Shown here: piece after piece, positions 1,680-38,353 of the stretch
How positions within the stretch are numbered: position 1 is the first letter of the stretch
How the letters are laid out: the number at the start of each line of letters is the position of its first letter
Assembly (NCBI GenBank): GCA_026705445.1
Contig: JAPPAR010000029.1
Span: 1-38,437, forward strand
Direction of reading: 5' to 3'
Origin: Candidatus Dadabacteria bacterium
GTDB taxonomy: Bacteria; Desulfobacterota_D; UBA1144; Nemesobacterales; Nemesobacteraceae
Length of the DNA: 38,437 nt
Notes under the pieces: model-generated
What the model saw: only the letters and a program-made list of their open reading frames with translations
Told to the model about the DNA's origin: nothing
The model's database searches: none
Position numbers and translations under genes: made by a program

Positions 1680-1782
1680 GAAATAAAGCTCCTTTTCGGA
1701 ATCGGGGCGTGCCTCGGATGGAAAGGAATAATTCAGGTTATCACAGTCGCCCGGATTTTCAATTCTCTGCTTGCAAACAATA

Positions 1783-1791
1783 TGGTACAAT
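1783..1791 (+). promoter_or_regulatory. Candidate extended -10 promoter for the MCE gene
   Basis: TGG followed by TACAAT at 1786-1791 matches an extended -10 element (TGnTATAAT type) in the purH/MCE divergent intergenic region, about 40 nt before the MCE start codon. No good -35 hexamer is visible at the normal spacing. The call rests on the -10 alone. Confidence 0.35.
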
Positions 1792-1831
1792 ATCAGAAAT
1801 CAGGCGTGTCGGCCGCGCCGGGTGAACGCAG

Positions 1832-2608
1832 ATGGAAAAGCAGAAATCGGCCCGACTCAAGGTAGGGGTTTTCGTCCTCGCATCGATCGCTATATTCGTT
1901 TACGGAGTTTTCACGATAAGCGGCCAGGAAGAGCTCTTTGAGAGGGAGTACAAGGTAAAGACCTACTTTGACAACTCGGCTGGGTTGCTCGAGGGTGCCT
2001 ATGTGCGACTCTCGGGAGTGGGAGTGGGATCCGTGTCGACCATCCGTTTCTCGGACGATTCTTCCCTCGGGAAGGTTCAGGTCATAATGGAAATCAACAA
2101 GCGGGCGCTTTCCAGAATCTCGAAGGACTCCCACGCCACGATCAAGACCGAAGGACTTCTGGGGGCGAAGTTCGTCGAGATCGTTCCCGGCCAGGGAGAG
2201 AGCATAGGCAAGGCCCGCGACGGGACCGTGATCAGGGGTTACACGTCGCCCGAGATGCAGGAGATAATAAGCCAGTCAGAGGAATTCGTTACTAACCTCA
2301 CGTCCATCTCCAGGAGTCTCGACAAGATAGTGGGGGCGTTTGCGGATGAGAAGCGGGAGGATTTCCTGCATACTCTCATCTACGACGAGCAGTTTGCGGC
2401 CGACATGCGGAGCTTCTCCTCCAACTTGGCCGAGATTTCCCGGATGATCAGGGAAGGAGAAGGTTCGCTTGGGGCACTTATAGTCGATCCCTCGGTTCAC
2501 GACGCCCTTAAAGGAGTGCTGGGGGAGGCGGAGAGAAACAGGTTTGTTCGCTCCGCCGTTAGGTATATGATAGAAGAAAAGGAGAAGAGGGCGTCGGGAG
2601 AGCATTAG
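1832..2608 (+). CDS. MlaD/MCE-family lipid-transfer protein
   Basis: This is a single-MCE-domain protein of the MlaD/Ttg2C type. Such proteins bind lipids in the periplasm as inner-membrane-anchored oligomers, working with an MlaE/MlaF ABC transporter. One N-terminal membrane anchor is seen (about residues 9-27, GVFVLASIAIFVYGVF), then the MCE domain (about 38-120) with YFDNSAGLLEGAYVRLSGV and TEGLLGAKFVEIVPG. The C-terminal part is probably helical and may form the oligomeric channel. At 258 aa it is longer than E. coli MlaD (about 180 aa). No permease, ATPase or MlaB/C gene is nearby, so its transport partners must be encoded elsewhere. There is no clear Shine-Dalgarno sequence before the ATG. 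Confidence 0.85.
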   Translation: MEKQKSARLKVGVFVLASIAIFVYGVFTISGQEELFEREYKVKTYFDNSAGLLEGAYVRLSGVGVGSVSTIRFSDDSSLGKVQVIMEINKRALSRISKDSHATIKTEGLLGAKFVEIVPGQGESIGKARDGTVIRGYTSPEMQEIISQSEEFVTNLTSISRSLDKIVGAFADEKREDFLHTLIYDEQFAADMRSFSSNLAEISRMIREGEGSLGALIVDPSVHDALKGVLGEAERNRFVRSAVRYMIEEKEKRASGEH

Positions 2609-2677
2609 GGTTCAAGCGGACCTTGCTTCCGGCGACGTCTTGATATTGAATCAGAAAGTCTTAAGGAGGTAATAAAG

Positions 2678-3451
2678 ATGTCAGCTAGAAGGTTTTTGGT
2701 TTTTTTGATTGCTTTGGTTTTCTGTGCCGTTCCGCTCACGGCCACGCACTCGGGTGAGGCCCCGCCGGCCCCGGCCAAGTCGTTTTCGCTTCCGGGCCCG
2801 CAGCTGGTAACCGGTGCTTGGATGTTCATCGCAGCCTACAAGGCCGACCCGGAGGTTTTGAAATCGATGCTTCCGGCGGGTCTTAAGCCCCATCCGAACA
2901 ATCACGTGGTCATAAACATGTACACGGTTCCCGACAAGAACCAGACCTCGGGATTCGGGGCGTACACGCTCACCTATCTGACGATTGAGCTTGAAGGTCA
3001 CAACTCGTACGTGATGGATTCCGATATAACCTACCCCGGAAGGTACTTCGTTCATTACTACAACAGCTCTCCCACGATGAGGGAGTTCACCAAGCCTGTC
3101 GGAATTCCCGCTCAGGAGGGAATGACCACCACCGTGGTAGAGAACGGAGTGCTTAAGACAAAGCTTGAAATCGGCGGACAGTCGATGATCGAGGCCACGG
3201 CCGAGGTCGGAAGCGAACTCGGAGGATTCGGTGGAGGACACCTTAACTACTTCGGGTTTATGGAGGATAAGGGAGTGGTCAAGTACCCGATCCCGTGGAA
3301 CGGGGGAACGGTATCAATGGCTAACCCGAAAATAACGTTCACGGCTCCCGAGGGACATTCGCTTCACAAGCTTAAGCCGCTTGGGGATCCGACCTGGGCG
3401 ATCTGGACCAAGGGAAGCTTCGTCTACCCCCAGTACCAGGTAGTTAACTGA
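2678..3451 (+). CDS. Secreted acetoacetate-decarboxylase-like protein
   Basis: The mature part resembles the acetoacetate decarboxylase (ADC) fold family. PEVLKSMLPAGLKP is the typical N-terminal motif, and REFTKPVGIPA aligns with the ADC segment that carries the Schiff-base lysine. K139 sits in the catalytic lysine position, but the neighbouring lysine of classical ADC is replaced by proline (P140). A signal peptide is evident (residues 1-23: basic start, hydrophobic FLVFLIALVFCAVPL, then a small-residue cleavage site), so the protein is likely periplasmic or secreted, which is unusual for ADC. The start is firm: AAGGAGGT at 2663-2670, 7 nt before the ATG. A strong terminator follows at 3475-3519. 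The true substrate is unknown; true acetoacetate decarboxylation is only one option. Confidence 0.72.
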   Translation: MSARRFLVFLIALVFCAVPLTATHSGEAPPAPAKSFSLPGPQLVTGAWMFIAAYKADPEVLKSMLPAGLKPHPNNHVVINMYTVPDKNQTSGFGAYTLTYLTIELEGHNSYVMDSDITYPGRYFVHYYNSSPTMREFTKPVGIPAQEGMTTTVVENGVLKTKLEIGGQSMIEATAEVGSELGGFGGGHLNYFGFMEDKGVVKYPIPWNGGTVSMANPKITFTAPEGHSLHKLKPLGDPTWAIWTKGSFVYPQYQVVN

Positions 3452-3474
3452 AGGTAAGGTAAGTACAGTTTTCA

Positions 3475-3519
3475 GGGTTGTATCCCGAAGCATCCTGCTT
3501 CGGGGTGCAGCCCTTTTTT
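3475..3519 (+). terminator. Strong Rho-independent terminator
   Basis: An uninterrupted 18-bp stem (3475-3492 with 3496-3513, some G-U pairs, core CCCGAAGCA/TGCTTCGGG) with a 3-nt loop is followed directly by six T at 3514-3519. It ends the ADC-like gene's transcript. The U-tract ends only 14 nt before the ATG of the next gene. Confidence 0.93.
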
Positions 3520-3533
3520 CCCCGAAAACCCCC

Positions 3534-4148
3534 ATGACCAGATCGGATTATCCCGTTTTATTTGTAATAAGCGAGATAAACGCGTTTTTCATACTGCTTC
3601 TCTTCTTCACGCTTCGCGCCGAGATGCCCGGAGTGTACTCCAAGCTTGTGGGAGTGCAGTGGGGGATGTTCATACTGAGTCCCGTGATCCACTTTCTTTT
3701 TCTCGGGTTTTTCTCCCGTTGGTCCTCGCTGGTCCAGTTTGCAAAGTTCTGCGTCATAAGTTTTTCTAACCTCGTAATCGACTTCGGAATACTTAACCTG
3801 CTCATCTATTATTCCGGGGTGGCGGAGGGGATCCTCTACTCGGTTTTCAAGGCGGCTTCCTTTATTCTGGCAAACGTTAACGGCTATGCGTGGAACAAGT
3901 TCTGGACGTTTCGCAGCAAGGAGGTCGAGGGATGGATGAACCAGTTCATAAGGTTCTTCGCCGTCGTGGGCGTGGGGCTCGTGATAAACGTTACGGTTGC
4001 TTCGTACGTGGTTGCCGAATTTGGAGGTTCGGGGGGATCCATCTCGTCCACGGTGTGGGCGAACATAGGAGCCGCGGTATCCTTGATATTCACGCTTTTC
4101 TGGAACTTCTTCGGCCTTAAGTATCTGGTTTTTAAGAAAAGGTCTTGA
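3534..4148 (+). CDS. GtrA-family membrane protein with extra N-terminal segments
   Basis: The C-terminal about 130 residues match the GtrA family, which are small four-helix membrane proteins often linked to polyprenyl-phosphate-sugar flipping or surface-polysaccharide modification. Motifs seen are VQFAKFCVISFSNLVIDFG, NVNGYAWNKFWTF (the family's conserved N-x-W-x-F/WTF region) and the final hydrophobic helices, ending FFGLKYLVFKKRS. About 65 residues with two more hydrophobic segments precede this, giving about six helices in 204 aa rather than four. There is no Shine-Dalgarno sequence before the ATG, and a terminator ends 14 nt upstream, so the start may lie downstream (for example Met30 or Met45). 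No partner glycosyltransferase is nearby. Confidence 0.8.
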   Translation: MTRSDYPVLFVISEINAFFILLLFFTLRAEMPGVYSKLVGVQWGMFILSPVIHFLFLGFFSRWSSLVQFAKFCVISFSNLVIDFGILNLLIYYSGVAEGILYSVFKAASFILANVNGYAWNKFWTFRSKEVEGWMNQFIRFFAVVGVGLVINVTVASYVVAEFGGSGGSISSTVWANIGAAVSLIFTLFWNFFGLKYLVFKKRS

Positions 4149-4370
4149 AGAAATGATGACGGGCATTTTGCCTCGACACCTCAATCAATGCAGCTTTATC
4201 TTTTTCCGCATTTTCAAGGTTAAATAGATTTTTTCTTGGGACCCAGTTGTCCTGCTGGAAGCCTGCTAGGTGAGCACGAACAAGAGGTGAATCCTCTTGG
4301 GGACTTTTTGCCGATGTTCTGTGGAAACTACAGTGAAATGTGCTATTATGGGCGTTCACGGGACACTGAG

Positions 4371-4553
4371 ATGATCAAACTGAAACCTATTCGTACTGAA
4401 GAGGACTACGAAGCTGCGTTGGCGCGCATTGACGAGATATTTGAAGCAGAACACGGTAGCCTTGAAGGAAAAGAACTCGATGTTTTGGTCGATCTTGTTG
4501 AGTTCTACGAGAACAAGAATTTTCCAATGGAAAATCCGAATATTGCGGAATAG
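4371..4553 (+). pseudogene. Truncated HigA-type antitoxin (N-terminal part only)
   Basis: The 60 residues read MIKLKPIRTEEDYEAAL..RIDEIF..., then EGKELDVLVDLVE.YENKNFP. This is the conserved N-terminal segment of HigA-like antitoxins, which in intact proteins continues directly into a helix-turn-helix (typically ...PDPIEAIKFRMEQ). Here a TAG at 4551 ends the frame just where the HTH should begin, and none of the three downstream frames restores it before the tRNA gene. No intact HigB toxin is present upstream. It could be a decayed fragment or a short stand-alone protein; I favour decay. It lies against the 3' end of tRNA-Gly, a common insertion hotspot. Confidence 0.6.
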
Positions 4554-4631
4554 AGGGTGAAATTATCAACAAGAGCGGACTTAATATTACCACGGAAACC
4601 GGAATTGAAATAAGGCCTTCGGAGAGTGAGA

Positions 4632-4704
4632 GCGGGCGACGGGATTCGAACCCGCGACCCTTGGCTTGGGAAGCCAATGCTCTGGCCAACTGAGCTACAC
4701 CCGC
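4632..4704 (-). tRNA. tRNA-Gly (anticodon CCC)
   Basis: The 73-nt cloverleaf folds fully on the minus strand. The acceptor stem is GCGGGTG/CGCCCGC (one G-U), the anticodon arm is TTGGC-TTCCCAA-GCCAA giving anticodon CCC, and the T arm is GCGGG-TTCGAAT-CCCGT. CCA is not encoded. The HigA remnant lies immediately beyond its 3' end. Confidence 0.97.
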
Positions 4705-4792
4705 AATATCCAAAGGACTTTATACGGATATTGCGGACAAATCAAACCCCACACCGCGGACGGTTCTCCGGATAAGCGGCGCACGTTTCAGA

Positions 4793-4798
4793 TATAAT
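4793..4798 (+). promoter_or_regulatory. -10 element of murQ, consistent with a leaderless mRNA
   Basis: A perfect TATAAT ends 7 nt before the GTG start of murQ, so transcription would begin at or next to the start codon. There is no Shine-Dalgarno sequence and the -35 region is weak. Confidence 0.55.
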
Positions 4799-4805
4799 AT
4801 TCCAC

Positions 4806-5729
4806 GTGGAAAAGACTCGCCGGACAGGACACCTGCTCACAGAGAAAGTAAACCCGCGGACGGCCAGTATCGATGAACTTTCATGTTCTGAGATCATTGA
4901 TCTTATAAGCGGAGAAGATCAGGCGGCGTTTGAGGCCGTCTCAAGGGGAAAAGATTCCATTTCCCGGGCGGCGGAAATGGTTTTCCGCTCTCTTGAGCGC
5001 GGCGGCAGGGTTTTTTTCGTCGGTGCGGGGACAAGCGGACGGCTCGGGGTGATGGAAGCTGCCGAATGCCCGCCTACCTTCGGAACGGATCCCGAGACGG
5101 TGCAGGCGGTTATGGCGGGAGGGCGGGATGCGGTATGGAACTCGGTTGAGGGCGCTGAGGATTCCGCTACGGCTTCCGTGGAAACCCTCCGTGACAAAAA
5201 ACTCTCTGGGGACGACGTGGTTCTGGGAATCGCGGCGAGTTCCGGTACGCCGTTTGTGATATCGGCCCTTGAGTACGCCCGGACGGTCGACTGCGCGACC
5301 ATACTTATAAGCTGCAGCGAACCGGAGAACGTCCCAGCCGACTTGGTCATAACCCTTCTTGTCGGTCCTGAAGTGATAGTGGGGTCCACTAGGCTCAAGG
5401 CCGCAACCGCGACAAAAATGGTCCTTAACATGATTACGACGACCGCGATGGTTCTTCTCGGGAAGACTTACGGGAACCTGATGATTGATCTTAAACCCAC
5501 ATCTTCGAAGCTTGTCGACAGGGCAAGGAGAATCATAATGGAGATATGTGGCGTGGGGGAAGAAGAAGCTGCCTCGCTTTTCCGGGAAGCCGGCGGAAAT
5601 CTCAAGATTGCCGTGGTTATGAAGCTTGGGGGTCTCTTGCTTGATGAGTCAGTCAGTTTGCTAAGAGAAAATGATGAATCCTTAAAGAAAACTCTCGCGA
5701 CCATATCCCGCGGAGCGAGGAATCCGTAA
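4806..5729 (+). CDS. murQ: N-acetylmuramic acid 6-phosphate etherase MurQ
   Basis: MurQ cleaves the lactyl ether of MurNAc-6-P to give GlcNAc-6-P and D-lactate, the step after AnmK in cell-wall recycling. The SIS fold is clear: LLTEKVNP near the start, VFFVGAGTSGRLGVMEAAECPPTFG (residues about 69-93; the Glu of AECPP, E87, is the catalytic type), VEGAED near 114-119, and GIAASSGTPFV. The C-terminal segment DLKPTSSKLVDRA.RII is also typical. The 307-aa length is normal. The GTG start at 4806 gives the canonical N-terminus; it lacks a Shine-Dalgarno sequence but has a TATAAT 7 nt upstream. The rest of the recycling locus (anmK, nagZ, symporter) resumes at 8028, after an inserted accessory segment. 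Confidence 0.96.
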   Translation: MEKTRRTGHLLTEKVNPRTASIDELSCSEIIDLISGEDQAAFEAVSRGKDSISRAAEMVFRSLERGGRVFFVGAGTSGRLGVMEAAECPPTFGTDPETVQAVMAGGRDAVWNSVEGAEDSATASVETLRDKKLSGDDVVLGIAASSGTPFVISALEYARTVDCATILISCSEPENVPADLVITLLVGPEVIVGSTRLKAATATKMVLNMITTTAMVLLGKTYGNLMIDLKPTSSKLVDRARRIIMEICGVGEEEAASLFREAGGNLKIAVVMKLGGLLLDESVSLLRENDESLKKTLATISRGARNP

Positions 5730-5732
5730 TCA

Positions 5733-5843
5733 CCGGACTACGGCCCTAGTCCCGATAAGCTCGACGGACAGGGAACCTTGTTTTTCATCGGTATCAAGCG
5801 GCGTTACGTTATATCTTCTGTGGGGTAGTTCGCGTTACCAAGC
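5733..5843 (-). pseudogene. Broken remnant of mobile mystery protein B (Fic-type partner)
   Basis: Immediately after the stop of the MMP-A gene, the minus strand encodes GNANYPTEDIT in one frame and NVTPLDTDEKQG in another. The frames are separated by a 5-bp tandem duplication (TAACG-TAACG). Removing one copy gives a continuous NYPTEDITPLDTDEKQG, which resembles the conserved YP.GATPLDPDEA.G opening of mobile mystery protein B, the Fic-domain protein usually encoded right behind protein A. After EKQG the similarity stops and the frame ends at 5733, so the whole Fic domain is missing. The family match is from memory of the motif. The frameshift logic is visible directly. Confidence 0.5.
5735..5752 (+). 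other. Hairpin downstream of murQ
   Basis: GGACTA (5735-5740) pairs with TAGTCC (5747-5752) around a 6-nt loop, five bases after the murQ stop codon. No T-run follows, so it could protect the 3' end or be incidental rather than act as an intrinsic terminator. Confidence 0.3.
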
Positions 5844-6305
5844 CTAATCGTTCCACAAGTCGCTTGGCTGTTCCTTAAAAATGTTTTCTGTGATGCGTTC
5901 TATTTCGAATTCGATCTGGCTTTGAGAAAGAATCTGTTGTTCAAGTGCCATGTGTTCTGCAGTTTCCATTACGTGCCGCTTGGCTTTTTCTCTTGCGCGC
6001 CGCTTGATAAGAACTTCCGCATTTTCTTCCGGCACAAAAGCGTAAATGAAACGACAATTTACCGCTTCTGCCATGGATCGCATGGTTCTTAGAGTCACTC
6101 CGCCATTAAGTTCCGCCTTTTCCATATTAGAGATAAGGGCTCGAGTTCTGCCTAGCCGTCGCGCCAGTTGTGCCGCGGACATGCCGAGGGCTTTTCTGGC
6201 CGTGCGAATCCAGCCCTCGGGAGGCAAGGTAAAACCCCGAAATTTCAATGTGGCTTGGTTAAGCTTCTTGCGGTACTGTTTTGCGGTAATGGGCTTAACG
6301 CTCAT
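5844..6305 (-). CDS. Mobile mystery protein A: XRE-type HTH antitoxin/regulator
   Basis: The 153-aa protein has an XRE helix-turn-helix at about residues 32-85 (GWIRTARKALGMSAAQLARRLG, then RALISNMEKAE and TLRTMRSMAEAVNCRFIYAFVP). The PPEGWIRTARKALGMS entry and CRFIYAFVP exit are characteristic of 'mobile mystery protein A', normally paired with a Fic-domain protein B in a toxin-antitoxin-like pair. The C-terminal half is helical and charged. Only a frameshifted stub of protein B follows, so this is an orphan half. A weak AGGA lies about 8 nt before the ATG. It is inserted between murQ and anmK, and may now act only as an autoregulator of an AT-rich promoter. Confidence 0.8.
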   Translation of the reverse strand: MSVKPITAKQYRKKLNQATLKFRGFTLPPEGWIRTARKALGMSAAQLARRLGRTRALISNMEKAELNGGVTLRTMRSMAEAVNCRFIYAFVPEENAEVLIKRRAREKAKRHVMETAEHMALEQQILSQSQIEFEIERITENIFKEQPSDLWND

Positions 6306-6336
6306 TGTGCGTCCTGAATACTTATACGGATAAATT

Positions 6337-6374
6337 GTATAGCTACTTGCATACGTTTTAACTTAAAATGTCAA
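6337..6374 (-). promoter_or_regulatory. Candidate promoter/operator of the MMP-A gene
   Basis: On the minus strand a perfect TTGACA (plus 6369-6374) lies 15 bp before TATGCA (plus 6348-6353), in an AT-rich stretch about 45-70 bp upstream of the gene. An imperfect dyad GTAT-N10-ATAC (6337-6354) overlaps the -10 and could be an autoregulatory operator. The spacing is short, so the call is tentative. Confidence 0.35.
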
Positions 6375-6638
6375 TATATAGATATACATAATATTATGGG
6401 CGCACAGAAAAACCTACCATGTCACAGTATTACTATAAAGCGTTTGATCCGCTTGGCGTTGCTTAGTGAAATTTTGGGGAAGCTGGCTCGCTTTGTTTAA
6501 GGTTGCGGTTGAATCCTCGCACAGTAAAAAGCGAACTTTAACGCTGGAAGGTTAAATAGAATTTTTCCGCTGGACATTCTTTAGTTGGGGTTGGAAGAAT
6601 TCTAACTTACCAATATTTCCGGCAGGAGCGCGAACGGT

Positions 6639-6707
6639 TGCAAAACCGTAAATTAGACGCTCATGAAACCGTAAATCGGACGCTTGCAAAACCGTAAATC
6701 GGACGCT
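6639..6707 (+). repeat. Three tandem 23-bp repeats over the ATPase promoter
   Basis: The 19-bp core AAACCGTAAATCGGACGCT occurs at 6643-6661 (two mismatches: TA for CG), 6666-6684 and 6689-6707, at an exact 23-bp period. Copies one and three are preceded by TTGC. The last copy covers the whole spacer between the -35 and -10 of the downstream gene. The arrangement resembles iterons or operator arrays bound by a repressor. Confidence 0.85.
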
Positions 6708-6712
6708 AAAAT
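6684..6712 (+). promoter_or_regulatory. Promoter of the AAA/DUF4143 ATPase gene
   Basis: TTGCAA (6684-6689), a 17-bp spacer and TAAAAT (6707-6712). The -10 ends 8 nt before the ATG, predicting a leaderless or nearly leaderless transcript. The spacer coincides with the third tandem repeat, so a protein bound to the repeats would occlude RNA polymerase. Confidence 0.55.
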
Positions 6713-6720
6713 AATTTCTC

Positions 6721-7968
6721 ATGATTTCCGTACAGTCATTTATTCCAAGGTTGCTGGCCCCGACTATTCAGACTGCGTTAGAAGATACGCCCGTAGTTTG
6801 TCTTCTGGGTCCACGGCAAAGCGGTAAAACTACTCTTGTTAAGCAATTGGCTCCTGAACGCTCTTTCATCAGTTTTGAAAGACGCGAATACTATATTGCC
6901 GCCACCGAGGATCCGGACGGTTTCGTGGCGAGCCTTCCGGATACCGTAACTCTTGATGAAGTACAGCGGGTTCCTGAATTGCTCCACGCTATCAAGCTGT
7001 CCGTAGACGAGGACCGTCGGCCCGGCCGTTTCCTGCTGACTGGTTCAGCTAACCTTTTACTGCTGCCGACCGTTACGGAATCTCTGGCAGGAAGGATGGA
7101 AATTGTCCGGTTGTATCCATTAACAGAGGCGGAAAAGAACCGCGGACCGGGACATTTCCTCAAAGAGCTGCTTGATGACAATTTTAAACCTAGCATCGCG
7201 GCCCGCAGGCAATCTTCAGGGCCGCCGTTGGAAGAGCGGATAATCGGGGGCGGCTACCCCGAACCGTTAACCAGGACCCCCGGACGTGCGAGACAGTGGT
7301 ACAGGCAGTACCTGTCAAGCGTTATTGAGCGTGACGCCCGTGATGTTTTAAATTTAAGAGATACAGAACAACTGCTCCGCTTGCTGGAACTGGTTTCCCT
7401 GCGAGGCGGGGAGTTGCTCAGCGTCAGCAACTTGGCCAATAATCTTGCAGTACACAGAGAGTCGGTGGAGAACTGGCTAGCTGTCCTTGAGCGTCTTTTT
7501 CTGTTGCGCCGTTTACCCGCTTGGCACTCCAATACCTCAAAACGCCTGATCAAATCGCCGAAGGTGCATTTGCTTGACAGTGGGCTTGCCTCAATGCTTA
7601 TGAATCTTGGGGTTTCCGACTGGTTATCCGACAGGGGCCGCATGGGGCACCTGCTTGAGACTTTTGTTTTGCAGCAGCTTGTCGCTCAGGCGACATGGAC
7701 GAACCCTGATCTGCGTTTCTGGCACTATCGCGACAAGGACAAGGTAGAGGTGGATATTGTTATTACGCTCGGCAGGAAAACTTGGGGGATAGAAATCAAG
7801 GCGTCAAGCGGGATTACCCCAAGGGACGGACGCGGGCTTAGAAGGCTCGCGGATCGGTGTGGACCGGATTTTGTCCGCGGAATCCTGTTTTATGCGGGTT
7901 CGGATATTTTTAATTTCAAAGACGGGCGGATTCTGGCCATGCCGCTCGAAGAACTCTGGAAGCGATAG
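6721..7968 (+). CDS. AAA-type ATP-binding protein with DUF4143 domain
   Basis: The N-terminal AAA_14 domain has a Walker A at about residues 30-37 (GPRQSGKT), a Walker B-like TLDEVQRVPEL (about 77-87) and the sensor-like FLLTGSANLLLLP. The C-terminal DUF4143 region contains GGYPEPL, YLSSVIERDARD, a winged-helix-like LSVSNLANNLAVHRESVENWL, and a restriction-nuclease-like core W.YRDKDKVEVDIVI.....WGIEIKAS (D, E.K pattern). The 415-aa length is normal for these stand-alone ATPases. They are common as scattered singletons with patchy distribution, and their function is not established; a conflict or defence role is suspected. There is no Shine-Dalgarno sequence, but a promoter abuts the ATG. It lies between murQ and anmK and separates the recycling genes. 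Confidence 0.85.
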   Translation: MISVQSFIPRLLAPTIQTALEDTPVVCLLGPRQSGKTTLVKQLAPERSFISFERREYYIAATEDPDGFVASLPDTVTLDEVQRVPELLHAIKLSVDEDRRPGRFLLTGSANLLLLPTVTESLAGRMEIVRLYPLTEAEKNRGPGHFLKELLDDNFKPSIAARRQSSGPPLEERIIGGGYPEPLTRTPGRARQWYRQYLSSVIERDARDVLNLRDTEQLLRLLELVSLRGGELLSVSNLANNLAVHRESVENWLAVLERLFLLRRLPAWHSNTSKRLIKSPKVHLLDSGLASMLMNLGVSDWLSDRGRMGHLLETFVLQQLVAQATWTNPDLRFWHYRDKDKVEVDIVITLGRKTWGIEIKASSGITPRDGRGLRRLADRCGPDFVRGILFYAGSDIFNFKDGRILAMPLEELWKR

Positions 7969-28738: not shown

Positions 28739-29122
28739 GTGATTTTTTTTGACGGCGTGTGCGGGTTCTGCAACAGGTTCGTCGATTTCGTAATGTGGGC
28801 GGATGTACGCCGGGAAATATTCTTTTCCCCCGTGCAGGGAGAGACGGCCGTTGAGTTCTCTCTGTATCAGGACGAACCCCCGCGCGATTGGAAGATGGCC
28901 TACGCTGATGAAGAAGGAGTTTACGAGGGAGCTGACGCGGTTTTGCTGGTACTTAAGAGACTTGGAGGTCTCTGGACACTTCCCGCGCTTCTGATATATG
29001 TCCCCCGGCCTGTAAAAGACTATCTCTACGGGATCGTATCGAGAAACCGCTACAGTATTTTCGGAAAAAGGGATGCATGCCGGGTACCGTCCCCTGAGGA
29101 GAGGGAAAGGTTTTTGCCCTAG
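28739..29122 (+). CDS. DCC-family (DUF393) thiol-disulfide oxidoreductase-like protein
   Basis: The family signature DGVCGFCN (D5, C8, C11) lies at the very N-terminus, giving a thioredoxin-like C-x-x-C, and the rest (FFSPVQGETA, YADEEGVYEGADAVLLVLKRLGG, YGIVSRNRYSIFGKRDACRVP) is typical of DUF393. The GTG at 28739 falls at the Val of the usual KPVIFFDG opening, and the frame stays open upstream with IEIPGSEKP. The true start may therefore be a few codons earlier; GGGAG at 28707-28711 stands 6 nt before an in-frame ATT. The substrate is unknown. Its 3' end is repeated in degenerate form near 31211. Confidence 0.85.
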   Translation: MIFFDGVCGFCNRFVDFVMWADVRREIFFSPVQGETAVEFSLYQDEPPRDWKMAYADEEGVYEGADAVLLVLKRLGGLWTLPALLIYVPRPVKDYLYGIVSRNRYSIFGKRDACRVPSPEERERFLP

Positions 29123-29133
29123 GCGCTTTTTTG
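29094..29133 (+). repeat. 3' end of the DCC gene: left copy of an att-like direct repeat
   Basis: The 40 bases from CTGAGGAGAGGG to GCGCTTTTTTG end the DCC gene and recur, at roughly 85% identity with small gaps, at 31211-31249. The segment between the copies carries only the AlbA_2/GHKL gene and its flanking repeats. Confidence 0.6.
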
Positions 29134-29257
29134 TATATACTCATTGCGTATTGGAATCCTCCGCGTGGGAGCATTGTTGAAGGACCTGCTACTGTGTTTA
29201 TAGTCCGGATACATCGTATGAAGCTGGCCGAATTGAGATACGGCAGCGGAAAAACCT

Positions 29258-29366
29258 CATTTTCCAGTCAAGTAAAAACTTGTTGCGCAACACGCTGATA
29301 TGCAAGACTTTTCCCGAATTCAGCTCTGAAAAAACATCTCCAGGTGATTTTCCAGTCAAGTAAAAA
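29258..29366 (+). repeat. 109-bp direct repeat, copy 1
   Basis: Identical to 31087-31195 apart from five substitutions over 109 bp. Each copy begins and ends with the same 20-mer, ATTTTCCAGTCAAGTAAAAA (29259-29278 and 29347-29366). It also holds the 12-bp palindrome TGTTGCGCAACA (29281-29292). It begins 14 bp beyond the stop codon of the AlbA_2 gene. Confidence 0.93.
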
Positions 29367-29380
29367 TTCCGATTGTTCTC

Positions 29381-30853
29381 TCATGATGAACTCGAGGCCC
29401 AAGACGGGACGTAGCGCATGAACTTGGGGCCGGCTTCCGCGTTCTCCGGTACAATCAAACCTTCGTCAACGGTATCTTTGATAATACGTGATATCATTGC
29501 CCTGTTATTGGTTTTAATGCCGAACCTTTCTCTCAGGGAGGAGTTGGTCATGCGTTCATTACTTACCCACTTGAGGCAGGCATGAAGGTAACAGGCGCGG
29601 ATTCGGTCGGATTTATCCATATCCGCCAGCTTTTTCCGCGAGAAAAGAATAGCTCGGGTAGCATCGGGCGGCGCGTCAAAAAGCGGAGCCGGCAACTGCG
29701 CGTGTTCGACTTCAAATACAACTTTGTCAATGCCGCTGCCCTGTTCCTCGCAGATTCCAAACTGCCTCATCAACGATGCCAGCGATTCGTTGCGGGACTG
29801 CGGAGGGGCATCAACAAAGCGATCGGTTGATATCAGCGGTTCTCCGGGATTTGCTATCTCAATGCGGTCATCGAATATTTCGACCTTCGGACCGGTTCCG
29901 GTGATTGAGAAATCCTGATGAATAAGGGCGTTCGCCACCAGCTCCCGCACGGCCAGATCCGGGAACATGCGTTCCGTATTCCTGATTCCCCCTTCAATGA
30001 TTTCATGTGAGGGAAGCAGCGCGTCTATATATTCCACAAGACCTCTAAATCCGGTCGCGTACCCCATGTCCCCGGTTCGGTCCCGGTCCGTTTCCCTACG
30101 GTTTGTGCCCTTGTACTTGATTACCCGAACAGTTTTCCGTTTGAGATCCGGAAAGTCGCTTAGGCTTCTGGCGAAAAGCAGCGCTCCCAGATTGGTTATG
30201 TTCCAACCCTCAATATCATGCTGGACAATCAGCCGACTGCTCTTTAGTTCGCTGAGTATGTTCGATCTGCCCTCGGGAATAGGCTTCTTCAGAAGGTCGA
30301 AATAGGCCGGGTAATCGAGCATCTGCAGAACGGTCTCATCATCAACCTGTTCCATCGCAGATAATCTTTCAAAAGGTCTTTCGCTGAATATTCTCCACAA
30401 CCTGCGGGCGCGTTCAGGTGATGACGTGAGCTGGCGCGTGACTTTATCAATGCGGATATATTCAACATTTTTGAAACTGACTGGATGACTGGTCGCCCTG
30501 CCAATTTCAAGTACCACAACTTTCTTTTCATCAATATTCACTGTTAGGAAACGGAACGGAACTTCGGGTTTAAGCATGGAAAGCAGCCAGTGCTGCAACG
30601 GCTGGTTCTTGGCTTTTGCTTTTCCGGGGTCAAAATTAGTGCCAAGAATTTCATGTGTACAGTTCTCGATTCCCCAGACGAGGTATCCGTGGGACTGGCC
30701 ATTGAGAGCGGCTCCGTTTGAGAGAGCCGATATATATTTCCCTATATCTTCAGGGTCGGCGGCATTGTGTTTGAATTCCACCCACTCCGTTTCAGAAGGC
30801 AAGTCGCACAATTTCCGCGCCAGCTTGGCAAGAGTTTCTTCAGAATAGCCCAT
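29381..30853 (-). CDS. AlbA_2 (Schlafen-like) domain protein with GHKL-type ATPase domain
   Basis: The N-terminal AlbA_2/Schlafen-type domain (about 1-150) shows ETEWVEFKHN, IGKYISALSNGAAL and GYLVWGIEN. This fold is nucleic-acid binding and sometimes nucleolytic. The middle and C-terminal part (about 200-400) is a GHKL/HATPase_c_4 module: VRELVANALIHQDFS (N-box), IEIANPGEP (G1-like) and FGICEEQGSGIDKV (G2-like). A final winged-helix segment (SLRERFGIKTNNRAMISRIIKD) follows. At 490 aa this is a common COG2865 architecture, formerly called transcriptional regulator or RecG-like; its role is unproven, and defence or regulation is likely. GAGG lies 9 nt before the ATG. It is the only gene inside a repeat-bounded segment. 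Confidence 0.85.
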   Translation of the reverse strand: MGYSEETLAKLARKLCDLPSETEWVEFKHNAADPEDIGKYISALSNGAALNGQSHGYLVWGIENCTHEILGTNFDPGKAKAKNQPLQHWLLSMLKPEVPFRFLTVNIDEKKVVVLEIGRATSHPVSFKNVEYIRIDKVTRQLTSSPERARRLWRIFSERPFERLSAMEQVDDETVLQMLDYPAYFDLLKKPIPEGRSNILSELKSSRLIVQHDIEGWNITNLGALLFARSLSDFPDLKRKTVRVIKYKGTNRRETDRDRTGDMGYATGFRGLVEYIDALLPSHEIIEGGIRNTERMFPDLAVRELVANALIHQDFSITGTGPKVEIFDDRIEIANPGEPLISTDRFVDAPPQSRNESLASLMRQFGICEEQGSGIDKVVFEVEHAQLPAPLFDAPPDATRAILFSRKKLADMDKSDRIRACYLHACLKWVSNERMTNSSLRERFGIKTNNRAMISRIIKDTVDEGLIVPENAEAGPKFMRYVPSWASSSS

Positions 30854-30951
30854 GTCGTATCCGCCTCAAAGATAGTCACAACCGCCCTTTCAGAAATCTG
30901 GTGTTAATAAACACATGCCGTTTCGCAAAAAAACTAGAAATTCTCGGCTTC

Positions 30952-31089
30952 TTACTCGGCGACTGATACCTCATTTAACAGATTATACAGTTTATCAGAG
31001 AATATGTAATGTCTGCGATTTTCCTGGAACCGCAATTTACAGTATTTCGAATAATTTGGATGTTCTCTGAATTCGCGGGGAAACTGCAT
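30952..31089 (-). CDS. Possible small ORF or gene fragment starting at the repeat edge
   Basis: The 45-codon ORF begins at the ATG formed by the end of the 20-mer (GACTGGAAAATG) and reads MQFPREFREHPNYSKYCKL, RFQENRRHYIFSDKLYNLL and so on to SVAE. The composition (aromatic, basic, helical ending) looks protein-like rather than random, and the same frame continues through the repeat upstream. I do not recognise it. It may be a fragment of a longer gene cut by the repeat, or a chance ORF. Confidence 0.25.
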   Translation of the reverse strand: MQFPREFREHPNYSKYCKLRFQENRRHYIFSDKLYNLLNEVSVAE

Positions 31090-31195
31090 TTTCCAGTCAA
31101 GTAAAAACTTGTTGCACAACACGCTGATATGCAAGACTTTTTCCGAATTTATCCCTGAAAAAACATCTCCAGGTGATTTTCCAGTCAAGTAAAAA
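31087..31195 (+). repeat. 109-bp direct repeat, copy 2
   Basis: This copy has the same length and order as copy 1 at 29258-29366, with five substitutions. The 20-mer ATTTTCCAGTCAAGTAAAAA is at 31088-31107 and 31176-31195. The central dyad is changed by one base to TGTTGCACAACA (31110-31121). It lies 234 bp upstream of the AlbA_2 start codon. Confidence 0.93.
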
Positions 31196-31210
31196 CCTCC
31201 GGGGTTTCCT

Positions 31211-31249
31211 CTGAGGAGAGGGAAGGACTTTTGTCTGGGCGCTTTTTTG
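31211..31249 (+). repeat. Degenerate second copy of the DCC gene 3' end
   Basis: This 39-bp stretch matches 29094-29133 and reads SSEEREGLLSG in the frame corresponding to PSPEERERFLP of the DCC protein, but without a stop at that place. It lies 15 bp after repeat copy 2, and is the right-hand partner of an att-like direct repeat or the relic of a second DCC gene. Confidence 0.55.
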
Positions 31250-31300
31250 ATAAATTCCCTCGTGTATGTATATTGAAGCGCAGGAGAATTTTCATTCGAG

Positions 31301-31933
31301 ATGCCTTCACTTGAAGAACTCGTCTTAGCCGACGAGACAGCCAGCAAGATAGAGCGAGCGAGCGAGACCGCCAGAGAAGAATGGGAGAAGATAAGGGTCT
31401 CCCTAGCTCTTTGCGGGGATACGGGGGATTACTGCGGGGATGATTTCATGCTCGGAACAATTTCCGGGGAAACGATAACGCGCGAGCCGCTTGGGAGTCC
31501 GACTAAGTCCGTTTCGGTTTACTCTCCAACCTATTATCCGATGTATCTCGTGAAGAACCTGCGGGAGTTCCGGGAGAAGTTCCCGGAGAAAAACTACCGC
31601 ACAACGGAAGCCCTCTATGTCTATGTAGAGCTTGTGAACGCGGCAGCGCAGCGCCTCGGTCTTGAGGGAACGCTGGCCATGGGGTTTGCCTGCGGCTATG
31701 CGAATGTGAGAACGGGCTGGATCGCGGAGAAGGGACTTCCGGAGCAGAGCGCCGTATTCTCCGAAATGTTTTTTTCAGACAGACCTAAGAACCACGACTG
31801 GGATTTTCACTGGACCTCGGTCAGGCAGAAATTCGCGGAAATCCACGAAAAATTCGTTGCCTGGCAGCGCTCCCCCGCCCTTTACCTGGAGGAGTCGAAA
31901 TCCAAGGCGGTCGTAAAGCCCTTCATAGTCTAG
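31301..31933 (+). CDS. Uncharacterised protein convergent with dnaB
   Basis: I do not recognise this 210-aa protein. It is soluble, with no signal peptide or membrane helix. The N-terminus is a charged helix (EELVLADETASKIERASE), and a central segment is rich in Tyr (VSVYSPTYYPMYLVKNLREFREKF). GLEGTLAMGFACGYANVRTGWIAEKGLPEQSAVF then suggests a compact fold, and the end is WDFHWTSVRQKFAEIHEKFVAWQRSP. Codon use resembles the core genes, so it is likely resident. AGGAG at 31281 is 15 nt from the ATG, rather far. It shares its final CTAG with the dnaB stop codon on the other strand. Confidence 0.65.
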   Translation: MPSLEELVLADETASKIERASETAREEWEKIRVSLALCGDTGDYCGDDFMLGTISGETITREPLGSPTKSVSVYSPTYYPMYLVKNLREFREKFPEKNYRTTEALYVYVELVNAAAQRLGLEGTLAMGFACGYANVRTGWIAEKGLPEQSAVFSEMFFSDRPKNHDWDFHWTSVRQKFAEIHEKFVAWQRSPALYLEESKSKAVVKPFIV

Positions 31934-35192: not shown

Positions 35193-35220
35193 TTGATGAC
35201 TGACATTTGATGACTGACAT
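35193..35220 (+). repeat. Tandem 14-bp duplication at an island edge
   Basis: TTGATGACTGACAT is repeated perfectly and head to tail at 35193-35206 and 35207-35220. It lies where the GC-rich core (nuoE) meets the AT-rich helicase block, just past the stop of the NERD-helicase gene, and may mark the junction of an insertion. Confidence 0.85.
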
Positions 35221-36956
35221 TATTTTTCAGACGAGCGAAGGCGAAGCTTTTCAATTGACCTTCTTGCCCGTTCCTCTATTATCAGGACAAGTAAGCTCTT
35301 AGCCCTAGATGTCGATACATAAAAAAGAGACTGCGAATTGTTGCCTTCTACGTCCCTTTTACCACCTAAAACGATTATAACAGGGCTTTCGAGGCCCTTG
35401 AAAGAATACGTGGTGGAAAATTTTATTGCTTTTTTCCTTTTTGTGGCTTGCAAGTTCCGTGAAATATCTGTGAGAGGAAATCCAGATATCTCTTTCACGT
35501 CTTCCAGCAGCCGCTTCGGAGAAAGGACAACTATGTCTTCCAAAGAAATTTGTTGCTGAAGCAGGAATTTGATTTTTTTGTCAAGGAGTGTGATCAAATG
35601 ATCGTATCCCTTCCAGTACTCATATTCTACAGGCAAACCATCTTCTTTTCCTGGCATGAGCGGTGGATTTTCAAATCCAGAAAGAAGATAGGTTTCTTCA
35701 GCGATAGGCCTAGTGTTTCTGCAATTGACAGTTAGGTTGTAATTGAGGTGGTTGTAGTTTTTCAGTATAGAGACTGGGTCCTCTTTTTCATCGTTAAAAG
35801 AATAAATAATCTGTCGGGAAAAATCCCCAAAGATTGCCCAGTGGCCATCAAACAATCCTCCACGTATGCTTAGATTGAAAACGTTCAATATTTCTTCTTT
35901 ACAAAGGTCCTGCGCTTCATCCATAATAAGCAAGTCAAACTGTGGCCCCAGTTCTTCGAGAGCCAGTTCCCCGTAGTGTGGGTATATTTCATCGTATAAC
36001 TCCTGATCATTTTGCGACTCTGATTTGATCTCGAGAAAATCTTTCTTATAACTACTTTTTTCTATCAGGTTTTCTACGACTCCATGGAATGTTCCAGCCA
36101 TAACATTAACATATTCTTTTGTCTGCTCTTGGAGCCATTGGCTTAGCAATTGGTTATAGCAAACAAGAAGCACTTTTTTCCCATCCGAACTTTTGCGCCG
36201 CGCAAACTCTAAAGCAAGCATTGTTTTCCCCGTTCCTGCCGCTCCCTTAAAAAGACAGCGTGGGTTGCCTTCAAGAGAATCTATTATTCTGTATTGCTCC
36301 TCAGTAAGTCTAAGCAACTCATCACTCGCTTCCTTAAGCAGGATGCTCTTTTTAAGCACTCGTTCAAAATCCGGCCTCAGATAGTTTCTGATCTTCTTTG
36401 CTTCTGAAGCAGTAGGTGCAGGTTTATTTAACAACTGCCTGTGGTTTCTTGCGGCTTTTTTTATAAAAGAAGATATAAAACGTTCCCCCGACAGGTCATC
36501 GCAATCAATGACTTCCCAACGTTTAAATTCTGGAGTGAGTTCAGGACATTCTGCGTAGGGGAAAGCAATCATGCGGCCAATAGGACAACGGGATTCACGG
36601 CAACCTTCAAACTTTTTTTCTATTGATTCTTTTAATGCAATTGTTGAGTCTTTAGCTTGCGTAAAGGGATTTTTGATTTTGTGTATTTTATTGTTTGAAT
36701 CAACGCTACTCCATTCGTCATTTTTTCGCTGAATTCCACCGCCTTTAACTTCAAGACAAACAATTCCCTCTTCTGGAATAATAATGACGAAATCTATTTC
36801 GCCATAGGGTTTTCCTACTCCTCTACTTGCCAACTCCATTGAGTGGAGAACAGTCCATCCTTCAGTATTTGGGTCATTTTTTAGTGCAGTAAAAATTTTG
36901 CGTTCAGCTTTTTTGCCCCGGTCTCGGGGACAACGCGCCGGAATCATTTTTGCCAT
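35220..36956 (-). CDS. NERD-domain nuclease fused to SF1 helicase
   Basis: The N-terminal NERD domain carries a restriction-like active site: GEIDFVIIIPEEGIVCLEVKGG (D, then E-x-K; about residues 52-73 from the chosen ATG). An SF1-type helicase core follows: Walker A GAAGTGKTM (about 238-246), DEAQD (about 346-350), FGDFSRQI (motif III), NCRNTRPI (motif IV), TTYSFKGLESPVIIVLG (motif V) and LFYVSTSRAKSLLVL (motif VI). This nuclease-helicase architecture occurs in phage-defence proteins such as the Nhi type. Base composition is distinctly AT-rich. The frame can also start at TTG 36977, overlapping the upstream stop (TTGA), but the ATG at 36956 seems likelier; neither has a good Shine-Dalgarno sequence. 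Confidence 0.82.
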   Translation of the reverse strand: MAKMIPARCPRDRGKKAERKIFTALKNDPNTEGWTVLHSMELASRGVGKPYGEIDFVIIIPEEGIVCLEVKGGGIQRKNDEWSSVDSNNKIHKIKNPFTQAKDSTIALKESIEKKFEGCRESRCPIGRMIAFPYAECPELTPEFKRWEVIDCDDLSGERFISSFIKKAARNHRQLLNKPAPTASEAKKIRNYLRPDFERVLKKSILLKEASDELLRLTEEQYRIIDSLEGNPRCLFKGAAGTGKTMLALEFARRKSSDGKKVLLVCYNQLLSQWLQEQTKEYVNVMAGTFHGVVENLIEKSSYKKDFLEIKSESQNDQELYDEIYPHYGELALEELGPQFDLLIMDEAQDLCKEEILNVFNLSIRGGLFDGHWAIFGDFSRQIIYSFNDEKEDPVSILKNYNHLNYNLTVNCRNTRPIAEETYLLSGFENPPLMPGKEDGLPVEYEYWKGYDHLITLLDKKIKFLLQQQISLEDIVVLSPKRLLEDVKEISGFPLTDISRNLQATKRKKAIKFSTTYSFKGLESPVIIVLGGKRDVEGNNSQSLFYVSTSRAKSLLVLIIEERARRSIEKLRLRSSEK

Positions 36957-36973
36957 TTTATTATTCTGTCTAT

Positions 36974-38353
36974 TCAATTAAGGATGGAAACAGCAGTATT
37001 GCCTTCTTTTGAATCAGAAGCTTCCAAATTATCGAACTCACATTCCCACCTGTTTGATTCAACGGTATAAGACGCAAGGCAGTTTGTATCTGTTCCATCA
37101 AATATTTGGACCAGAATTCCATCAGCTTTTCTAGCCCATGTGTTTGATTTTATAGTTTCTATATTGAAGCTCTCAATCGGAAAAGTTTTCCACCAGTATT
37201 TTTCATCACCCTTCCACTTGTAATAGGATTCTTTTAATTCTTTCTTAATATTGTAAGTAGGCTCTGATCCTCTTTCTTTCATGTTGCTGATCTTGACCAA
37301 GTACTTATCTGATGCTTCTCCGTCCGTTAAGGGTGGGATTCTGTCCCACCTGATAGAATAAGGCACATGTCTAGAAGAGATTAATTCTTCAAAAAATGGG
37401 GATATTTCAGTTGCACGTGTAATAATAATCAGTTGATCAACGGCACGTGTCATCGCAACATAAAAGAGTCTCCGTTCCGCTAATATTATACTCTCAAGGT
37501 CCTCTCCGAATACTTTTGTAAATATCCAATCCGGATGTATTAAAGGGTAGTGGTTTTCTATTGCGTCAAGTATGATGACAGTCTTTCTTTCAAGTCCCTT
37601 ATACTTATGGACAGTTGATACCGAGATTCTTTCCCTAAGCTCCTCCGGAAGATAAGAACGGATAAGTTTTTCAAAATTCTCAATACCTATACCCCTGACC
37701 GTTTCATCACCTGTTTCTTCCTCATTTTTTCCCTTGTGTTCTGCAACATGATTTATCCTTGAAAGTAACACAATATCTTGATTTCCTTTCAGGAATTGTT
37801 GAGCTAATCGTAGAACTGCTGGAGTAATAAAATCATTGTGGAAATCTTCCACTGGGGATCGCTCAAAATTATCCAAGTACGCAACAGCTAATATTCCGGC
37901 AGTGGTTTTATTGGATGTGGCGGGCTTTCCCAAGTCGGACATTAGTATATTGCCCGCTTTCACTATGGACCGTTGCGACCGATAATTGGTTGTCATGTGG
38001 AGACGTTTTGCATTACCGAAATGTCTGTCGAAATTTTTAAAGAAAATTAAATCAGAACCGGCGAACCCATTAATTGCCTGCCAGTCATCCCCAACACAGA
38101 ACAGTTCTATTTTCTGGTTTAGTTTCCTTATTGCTGAAACAAGCTTGTAGAACAACTCGGAAAAATCTTGGAACTCATCAATGAACATGTACTTGATAGT
38201 CCTGAGATCACACTTTGAATCTCTCCTTGTAAACTCTGCGTGTCCTGTGTTGATCTTGTTCACCGCGCGCTGCATTAATCCGTTAAAGTCTTCTTCGTTT
38301 GTGGTGGATAACCGCTCTAAATAATCCAGATAAACACACTGCATAATTTGCAA
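36974..38353 (-). CDS. UvrD/Rep-type helicase lacking N-terminal motifs (truncated or interrupted)
   Basis: The 459-aa frame contains SF1A motifs II to VI: FIDEFQDFSEL (II), FCVGDDWQAINGFAGSD (III), NYRSQRSIV (IV), VSTVHKYKGLERKTVIILD (V) and LFYVAMTRAVDQLIIIT (VI). Walker A (motif I) and motif Ia are missing. The nominal start is TTG at 38353, but reading further upstream gives EIRAKSSLIEKQFLQI, which looks like coding sequence, up to an in-frame TGA at 38393. Before the TGA the same frame is open to the window edge. A nonsense or frameshift mutation in a longer helicase, or an unusual gene split, is likely. It is AT-rich and abuts the NERD-helicase gene, forming a two-gene unit. Confidence 0.7.
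   Translation of the reverse strand: MQIMQCVYLDYLERLSTTNEEDFNGLMQRAVNKINTGHAEFTRRDSKCDLRTIKYMFIDEFQDFSELFYKLVSAIRKLNQKIELFCVGDDWQAINGFAGSDLIFFKNFDRHFGNAKRLHMTTNYRSQRSIVKAGNILMSDLGKPATSNKTTAGILAVAYLDNFERSPVEDFHNDFITPAVLRLAQQFLKGNQDIVLLSRINHVAEHKGKNEEETGDETVRGIGIENFEKLIRSYLPEELRERISVSTVHKYKGLERKTVIILDAIENHYPLIHPDWIFTKVFGEDLESIILAERRLFYVAMTRAVDQLIIITRATEISPFFEELISSRHVPYSIRWDRIPPLTDGEASDKYLVKISNMKERGSEPTYNIKKELKESYYKWKGDEKYWWKTFPIESFNIETIKSNTWARKADGILVQIFDGTDTNCLASYTVESNRWECEFDNLEASDSKEGNTAVSILN

What the first reader, a model, noticed from the sequence alone, without database searches (positions are those of the whole stretch)
29094..31249. A 2.15-kb single-gene module bounded by a duplicated gene 3' end
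The last 40 bp of the DCC gene recur in degenerate form at 31211-31249. Between the copies lie only the AlbA_2/GHKL gene and its flanking repeats. Integration at the 3' end of a gene with duplication of that end is typical of att-site recombination, yet no integrase is present. This could be a minimal non-autonomous cargo unit or the relic of a larger island.
Basis: partly seen in the sequence, partly recalled or inferred. Interest (0 to 1): 0.62.

Follow-up and report, generated by a model that had tools for sequence, protein, structure and literature searches.

The report
Schlafen-gene insert at a Dadabacteria hotspot
Between two ordinary genes of a Dadabacterium sits an inserted Schlafen-like gene, boxed by a long direct repeat and followed by a dead fragment of the neighbouring gene; nine of 13 sister genomes have an empty site there and two carry unrelated cargo, so this is a small gene-swap hotspot rather than a new kind of mobile element.

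Summary
The DCC 3' end recurs at 31206-31249 (score 51 against 25 for the best unrelated place). Between the copies lie only the AlbA_2/GHKL gene and a 121-bp direct repeat (93%). G001 and G010 carry the same module at the same site and orientation; in G010 the gene is broken. G008 (6.9 kb) and G011 (0.8 kb) carry unrelated cargo there.

The 40-bp att-duplicate reading is weakened. In G010 the right copy is a longer DCC pseudogene fragment (about 114 nt of coding). In G010 and G001 it resembles other species' DCC alleles more than its own neighbour. DCC is itself replaced between species: dS is 0.4-1.2, against 0.15-0.47 for six flanking genes, and identity drops sharply at about window 28781. 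The Schlafen copies differ about as much as their host lineages (dS 0.32-0.37).

Best reading: one old insertion that duplicated or displaced the DCC gene end, then gain and loss by homologous exchange at the flanks. An integrase origin with the integrase lost is the main rival.

The parts
28739..29122 (+). DCC1-like thiol-disulfide oxidoreductase gene; left anchor of the hotspot and itself an exchanged allele
   Evidence: PF04134 E 2.4e-21; dS 0.85-1.0 to G001/G002/G003/G010 against 0.15-0.47 for six flanking genes
29090..29133 (+). left copy of the duplicated gene end (DCC codons ~118-127, stop, 11 bp downstream)
29134..29245 (.). left spacer, unique to this genome; no homologue in any held locus
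29246..29366 (+). left direct repeat B, 121 bp, holding two copies of ATTTTCCAGTCAAGTAAAAA
29381..30853 (-). Schlafen AlbA_2 + GHKL (HATPase_c_4) protein, 490 aa; the cargo gene
   Evidence: intact 90%-identical orthologue in G001; dN/dS about 0.14
30854..31074 (.). upstream region of the Schlafen gene, conserved by eye in G001 and G010
31075..31195 (+). right direct repeat B, 93% identical to the left copy
31206..31249 (+). right copy: degenerate DCC gene end joined to the native spacer; in G010 the corresponding fragment holds about 114 nt of DCC coding
31250..31300 (+). native spacer before the 31301 gene, continuous with the empty-site spacer of relatives
31301..31933 (+). right anchor gene, 210 aa, no Pfam or NCBIfam match, present in 40 of 41 Dadabacteria-order genomes searched

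Best explanation
The gap between DCC and the 31301 gene is a gene-turnover hotspot of this Dadabacteria genus. The Schlafen module [B - AlbA_2/GHKL gene - B] was inserted there once, before the lineages of G000, G001 and G010 split. The event duplicated or displaced the end of DCC, leaving at least about 114 nt of a dead DCC fragment on the right and an intact DCC on the left. The locus has since been passed on and lost mainly by homologous exchange that uses DCC (left) and the 31301 gene (right) as arms. That explains the scar-free empty sites in close relatives and the swapped DCC alleles. The Schlafen protein is kept by selection, probably as an accessory defence-type factor (inferred). Shown: empty and filled sites, shared ends, other cargo at the same site, DCC allele replacement, a different-allele DCC relic, purifying selection. 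Inferred: single gain, loss by exchange, protein function. Not known: the enzyme or process of the first insertion.
For: Nine clean empty sites. The same module, position and orientation in G001 and G010; unrelated cargo at the same site in G008 and G011. Schlafen dS is 0.32-0.37 among the three, against about 0.25 for most flanking genes, so the copies are about as old as their lineages and not recent transfers. On the flank tree the presence pattern needs three changes. DCC dS is 0.4-1.2 within the clade while six flanking genes give 0.15-0.47, with an abrupt identity drop at about 28781; the pairs G000-G009 and G007-G008 stay at background. G010's right copy is a DCC fragment closest to the G001 allele (score 62), not its own DCC (32); G001's right copy matches G006, G000 and G009 alleles (61, 58, 56) better than its own (40). 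G000 and G001 have the same shortened right junction. [quoted passage not shown]
Against: The DCC tree does not formally reject the clade (AU p = 0.084). Single gain plus two losses costs the same three changes as three gains. No locus caught in the act (donor fragment) is held. The left spacer of G000 is unrelated to that of G001 and G010, which exchange alone does not explain. All genomes are draft or species-representative assemblies, and the left and right halves of the G010 module lie on different contigs.
Confidence: 0.52

Rival explanations
1. Integrase-made island relic. A satellite- or phage-like element with a tyrosine integrase integrated into the DCC gene end, as e14/phage 21 do in icd (from memory), carrying a replacement gene end and leaving the displaced end on the right; the integrase and other genes were later lost. 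The four same-direction 20-mers, two beside each junction, would be arm-type integrase sites.
For: Gene-end duplication plus scar-free empty site. Relatives of the protein lie directly beside the integrase in Streptococcus satellite phage Javan309, and in the same region as the integrase in Burkholderia phage Musica. On a circle the B repeats would flank the gene-end core on both sides in the same orientation. A displaced different-allele right copy is what such integration would leave.
Against: No integrase in the module in any of three genomes. The 20-mer occurs nowhere else in the 15 family genomes beyond isolated two-mismatch hits, in no viral contig, and elsewhere in the genome collection only as single scattered exact copies, so no autonomous partner is known. 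The DCC divergence covers nearly the whole gene, not only the 3' end.
Confidence: 0.25
2. Paralogue relic: DCC was tandemly duplicated, the second copy died, and the Schlafen module lies between the two.
For: G010's right copy is a DCC pseudogene fragment with a stop and a frameshift, and it differs in allele from the left copy.
Against: No relative has two DCC genes at this site; all 14 genus genomes give one DCC match. A fragment is found only where the module is present, and none is found in G008 and G011.
Confidence: 0.13
3. The module is a cassette or transposon whose ends are the B repeats (integron-like cassette, IS21-like or MITE-like ends).
For: B lies 14 bp beyond the stop codon of the gene and again upstream of it, like flanking attC sites. 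The two B copies of one genome look partly homogenised (98% in one half in G000 and G010).
Against: B does not fold as DNA better than shuffles (z between -0.9 and 0.3), and the repeats are direct, not inverted. IS21-type loci of the genus carry no such motif. No solo B, and no B at another locus in the genus.
Confidence: 0.07

Closest known systems
[quoted passage not shown] 2017, PMC5635113)
   Same: variable cargo at one fixed site between core genes, no integrase in this cargo, raised exchange in the flanking gene
   Different: here the cargo also carries a duplicated or displaced piece of the flanking gene and a 121-bp direct repeat; only 14 species-level genomes were examined
Integration into the 3' end of a protein gene with a replacement gene end (e14/phage 21 in icd; named from memory)
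   Same: intact gene on one side, dead gene-end fragment on the other, clean empty site
   Different: no integrase, no known autonomous element; the exchanged part covers nearly the whole DCC gene
Streptococcus satellite phages Javan309/328/114 (carry a 37% identical AlbA_2/GHKL protein; integrase adjacent in Javan309)
   Same: homologous cargo protein; in Javan309 at an element end beside the integrase
   Different: module here is one gene without integrase, primase or packaging genes
SLFN AlbA_2 + HATPase_c_4 proteins ('ATP-binding protein', COG2865-like)
   Same: full-length domain layout; 57% identical relatives on Cupriavidus and Burkholderia plasmids
   Different: no functional test; PADLOC gives only weak partial matches

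Membership tests
Horizontal-transfer hotspot | different cargo at the same site between the same core genes in related genomes | tested here: met
   9 empty, 3 Schlafen module, 1 SDR/sulfotransferase/TnpB cargo, 1 small IS200/605-ended cargo among 14 genomes
Horizontal-transfer hotspot | raised exchange in the flanking gene | tested here: met
   DCC dS 0.4-1.2 within the clade against 0.15-0.47 for six neighbouring genes; AU test of incongruence inconclusive, p 0.084
Integrase-mobilised element | encodes or neighbours its own recombinase | tested here: not met
   only one ORF of plausible size between the repeats in G000 and G001; tyrosine recombinases exist elsewhere in the genome
Integrase-mobilised element | short identical att core at both ends | tested here: inconclusive
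   44-bp pair about 84% identical here, but the right copy is a longer, different-allele DCC fragment in G010
Integrase-mobilised element | excision to a circle | not testable with these tools
   needs reads or cells
Integron cassette | attC site folding into a hairpin on the bottom strand | tested here: not met
   DNA fold z-scores -0.9 to 0.3 on both strands of both copies
IS21 family | istA/istB and inverted multiple terminal repeats | tested here: not met
   no transposase, repeats direct; motif absent from the three full-length IstB loci of the genus
SLFN AlbA_2 / GHKL protein | both domains above the Pfam cut-off in order | tested here: met
   PF04326 69.7 bits (cut-off 25.3), PF13749 78.3 bits (cut-off 26)
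Anti-phage defence system | match to a known defence family, or tested protection | tested here: inconclusive
   PADLOC partial match to an Argonaute-associated protein only, E 7e-7; protection not testable here

The most novel reading that the evidence does not exclude
The B repeats are recombination sites, with four same-direction 20-mers flanking the gene-end core, of a minimal one-gene unit that is moved in trans by a recombinase encoded elsewhere and enters the DCC gene end while replacing it.
Probability: 0.1. Interest if true: 0.6.

Novelty: new member of a known kind. Interest (0 to 1): 0.3.

Why it matters
It documents an integration hotspot in an uncultured, largely unstudied bacterial group, with empty, filled and alternative states. 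It ties gain and loss of a defence-like gene to allele exchange in the neighbouring gene. It is also a caution that a short gene-end duplicate can be the stump of a longer displaced allele and not an att core, which only comparison with relatives shows.

Tried and rejected
IS21 ends: IstB loci of the genus lack the motif. Integron attC: no fold. RNA element: no Rfam match at E up to 1. Wider occurrence of the 20-mer: the non-Dadabacteria exact hits in 84,980 genomes are mostly lone copies in unrelated contexts, including a conserved cyanobacterial coding spot counted three times; one had a second 3-mismatch copy nearby. Viral contigs: none. Recent transfer among the three species: rejected by Schlafen dS of 0.32-0.37. 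Loss by recombination between the B repeats: no solo B found. DCC remnant at the right end of the G008 or G011 cargo: none above shuffles. Origin of the 112-bp left spacer of G000: none found. Related loci of the protein in the order: one 50% relative in G025, without direct repeats of 25 bp or more.

Full report
Observation. The pair of gene-end copies is real. Window 29090-29133 aligns with 31206-31249 at score 51, and the best unrelated place in the window scores 25. Between them lie a 490-aa AlbA_2/HATPase_c_4 gene on the minus strand and a 121-bp direct repeat at 93% identity. Each repeat copy holds two identical 20-mers, ATTTTCCAGTCAAGTAAAAA. All four lie in the same direction and are the only ones in the genome at up to three mismatches (searched with the inner 19 bases). 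The order is A - spacer - B - gene - B - A', not a simple pair of ends.

Empty, filled and alternative sites. The window lies in a Dadabacterium: two relatives match public records named Candidatus Dadabacteria. Both anchor genes occur in all 14 genomes of the genus. In G002, G003, G004, G005, G006, G007, G009, G012 and G013 the DCC stop is followed by about 65 bp of spacer (some 20 bp more in G004) and the 31301 gene, with one copy of the gene end. In G001 the same module stands complete, in the same orientation. In G010 its left and right parts are on two contigs; the gene is interrupted after about 407 residues and has an internal TAG. In G008 the site holds 6.9 kb with a polyketide-cyclase-like protein, two short-chain dehydrogenases, an IS605-type TnpB gene, a sulfotransferase and a DUF1214 protein. 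In G011 it holds 0.8 kb beginning GGGAATTATGTATTTGACTTGACA, which resembles the end of the IS605 element in G008 (by eye).

The right copy. If the right copy were a short att core it should have one length and match its own left copy. It does neither. In G010 it starts at about DCC nt 270 and covers about 114 nt of coding, with a premature stop and a frameshift; reading frame 1 gives PVKECFYRIV*RNC against PVKEFLYGIVSRNR. It scores 62 against the G001 allele and 32 against its own left DCC; the upstream part alone reached 61 for the G001 allele against a shuffle maximum of 24. In G001 the right copy matches the alleles of G006, G000 and G009 (scores 61, 58, 56) better than its own (40). In G010 the B repeat runs on to ATTGTCC before the DCC fragment begins, as B does before the Schlafen stop codon on the left. 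In G000 and G001 both B and the fragment are shortened at the same place (by eye). I read this as one original junction (B against DCC nt ~270), later shortened in a lineage leading to G000 and G001.

DCC is an exchanged allele. Between members of the clade G000/G001/G002/G003/G010, dS is 0.4-1.2 for DCC. For lipA, the nitrilase, the 27736 gene, the cupin, dnaB and the 33326 gene it is 0.15-0.47. Identity falls from 90-97% to 72-83% at about window 28781, just inside DCC, in several pairs. The pairs G000-G009 and G007-G008 stay at background, so the gene is not simply fast-evolving. The DCC tree differs from the flank tree but does not reject the clade (AU p 0.084), so the case rests on dS and the breakpoint.

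Age and history of the module. The three Schlafen genes differ by dS 0.32-0.37 with dN 0.04-0.06. They are about as diverged as their hosts and under purifying selection. On the flank tree G000's nearest relatives G009, G012 and G013 are empty, and so is G002, the sister of G010; three changes are needed. I favour one old gain and two losses. Scar-free loss is easily explained if an empty DCC-31301 stretch from another lineage replaces a filled one. The left half of the G009 spacer (AAGTGTTTTTTGATAAATTCCCC.GTATATG) looks like that of G007 from another clade, while its right half (GCGCAGGAGG) looks like that of G000. This is by eye and only suggestive.

What the cargo is. The protein has both domains well above cut-off. 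Relatives are at 57% on Cupriavidus and Burkholderia plasmids. One at 37% over the full length sits beside the integrase in Streptococcus satellite phage Javan309, and one at 48% lies in the same region as the integrase in Burkholderia phage Musica. It is typical mobile-element cargo. A defence or regulatory role is an inference; PADLOC has no good match.

What the repeats are. B was not found at any other locus of the family. It is not an IS21 end, does not fold, and matches no Rfam family. Within G000 and within G010 the left and right copies share changes (98% in one half), so they probably convert each other. They could be arm-type integrase sites of a lost element, operator sites of the protein, or a simple duplication from the insertion. 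I cannot decide.

Verdict. The observation and its main prediction are confirmed; the mechanism offered (a 40-bp att duplicate) is only partly supported. The locus is a new example of a known kind: a gene-turnover hotspot with exchange at its flank. How the first insertion happened is open.

Noticed in passing
L068 (G008:C1:415000-424000), 900-7770: Alternative 6.9-kb cargo at the same hotspot: polyketide-cyclase-like protein, two short-chain dehydrogenases, sulfotransferase, DUF1214 protein, with an IS605-type TnpB element lying between the two dehydrogenase genes.
   Followed up: partly
L071 (G011:C59), DCC to 31301 gene: A 0.77-kb insert starting with an IS200/IS605-like end at the T-run after DCC; its small coding content is unidentified.
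   Followed up: no
L069 end and L070 end (G010 contigs C37, C59): The Schlafen gene of G010 breaks off in sequences with matching inverted ends (GTGTTGCAyTTCG...), probably an insertion sequence that split the contig.
   Followed up: partly
L129:3628-6372 (G000:C13): Accessory tyrosine recombinase next to a DNA-methyltransferase-like gene and a possible restriction-type gene: a possible restriction-modification island elsewhere in this genome.
   Followed up: no
window 35220-36977: 585-aa protein with an N-terminal nuclease-like stretch and a UvrD-like helicase part (read by eye from the translation), possibly a second accessory gene close to the hotspot.
   Followed up: no
window 31301-31933: A 210-aa protein without any Pfam or NCBIfam match, present in nearly all Dadabacteria-order genomes searched, with several weaker homologues per genome in one family.
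   Followed up: no
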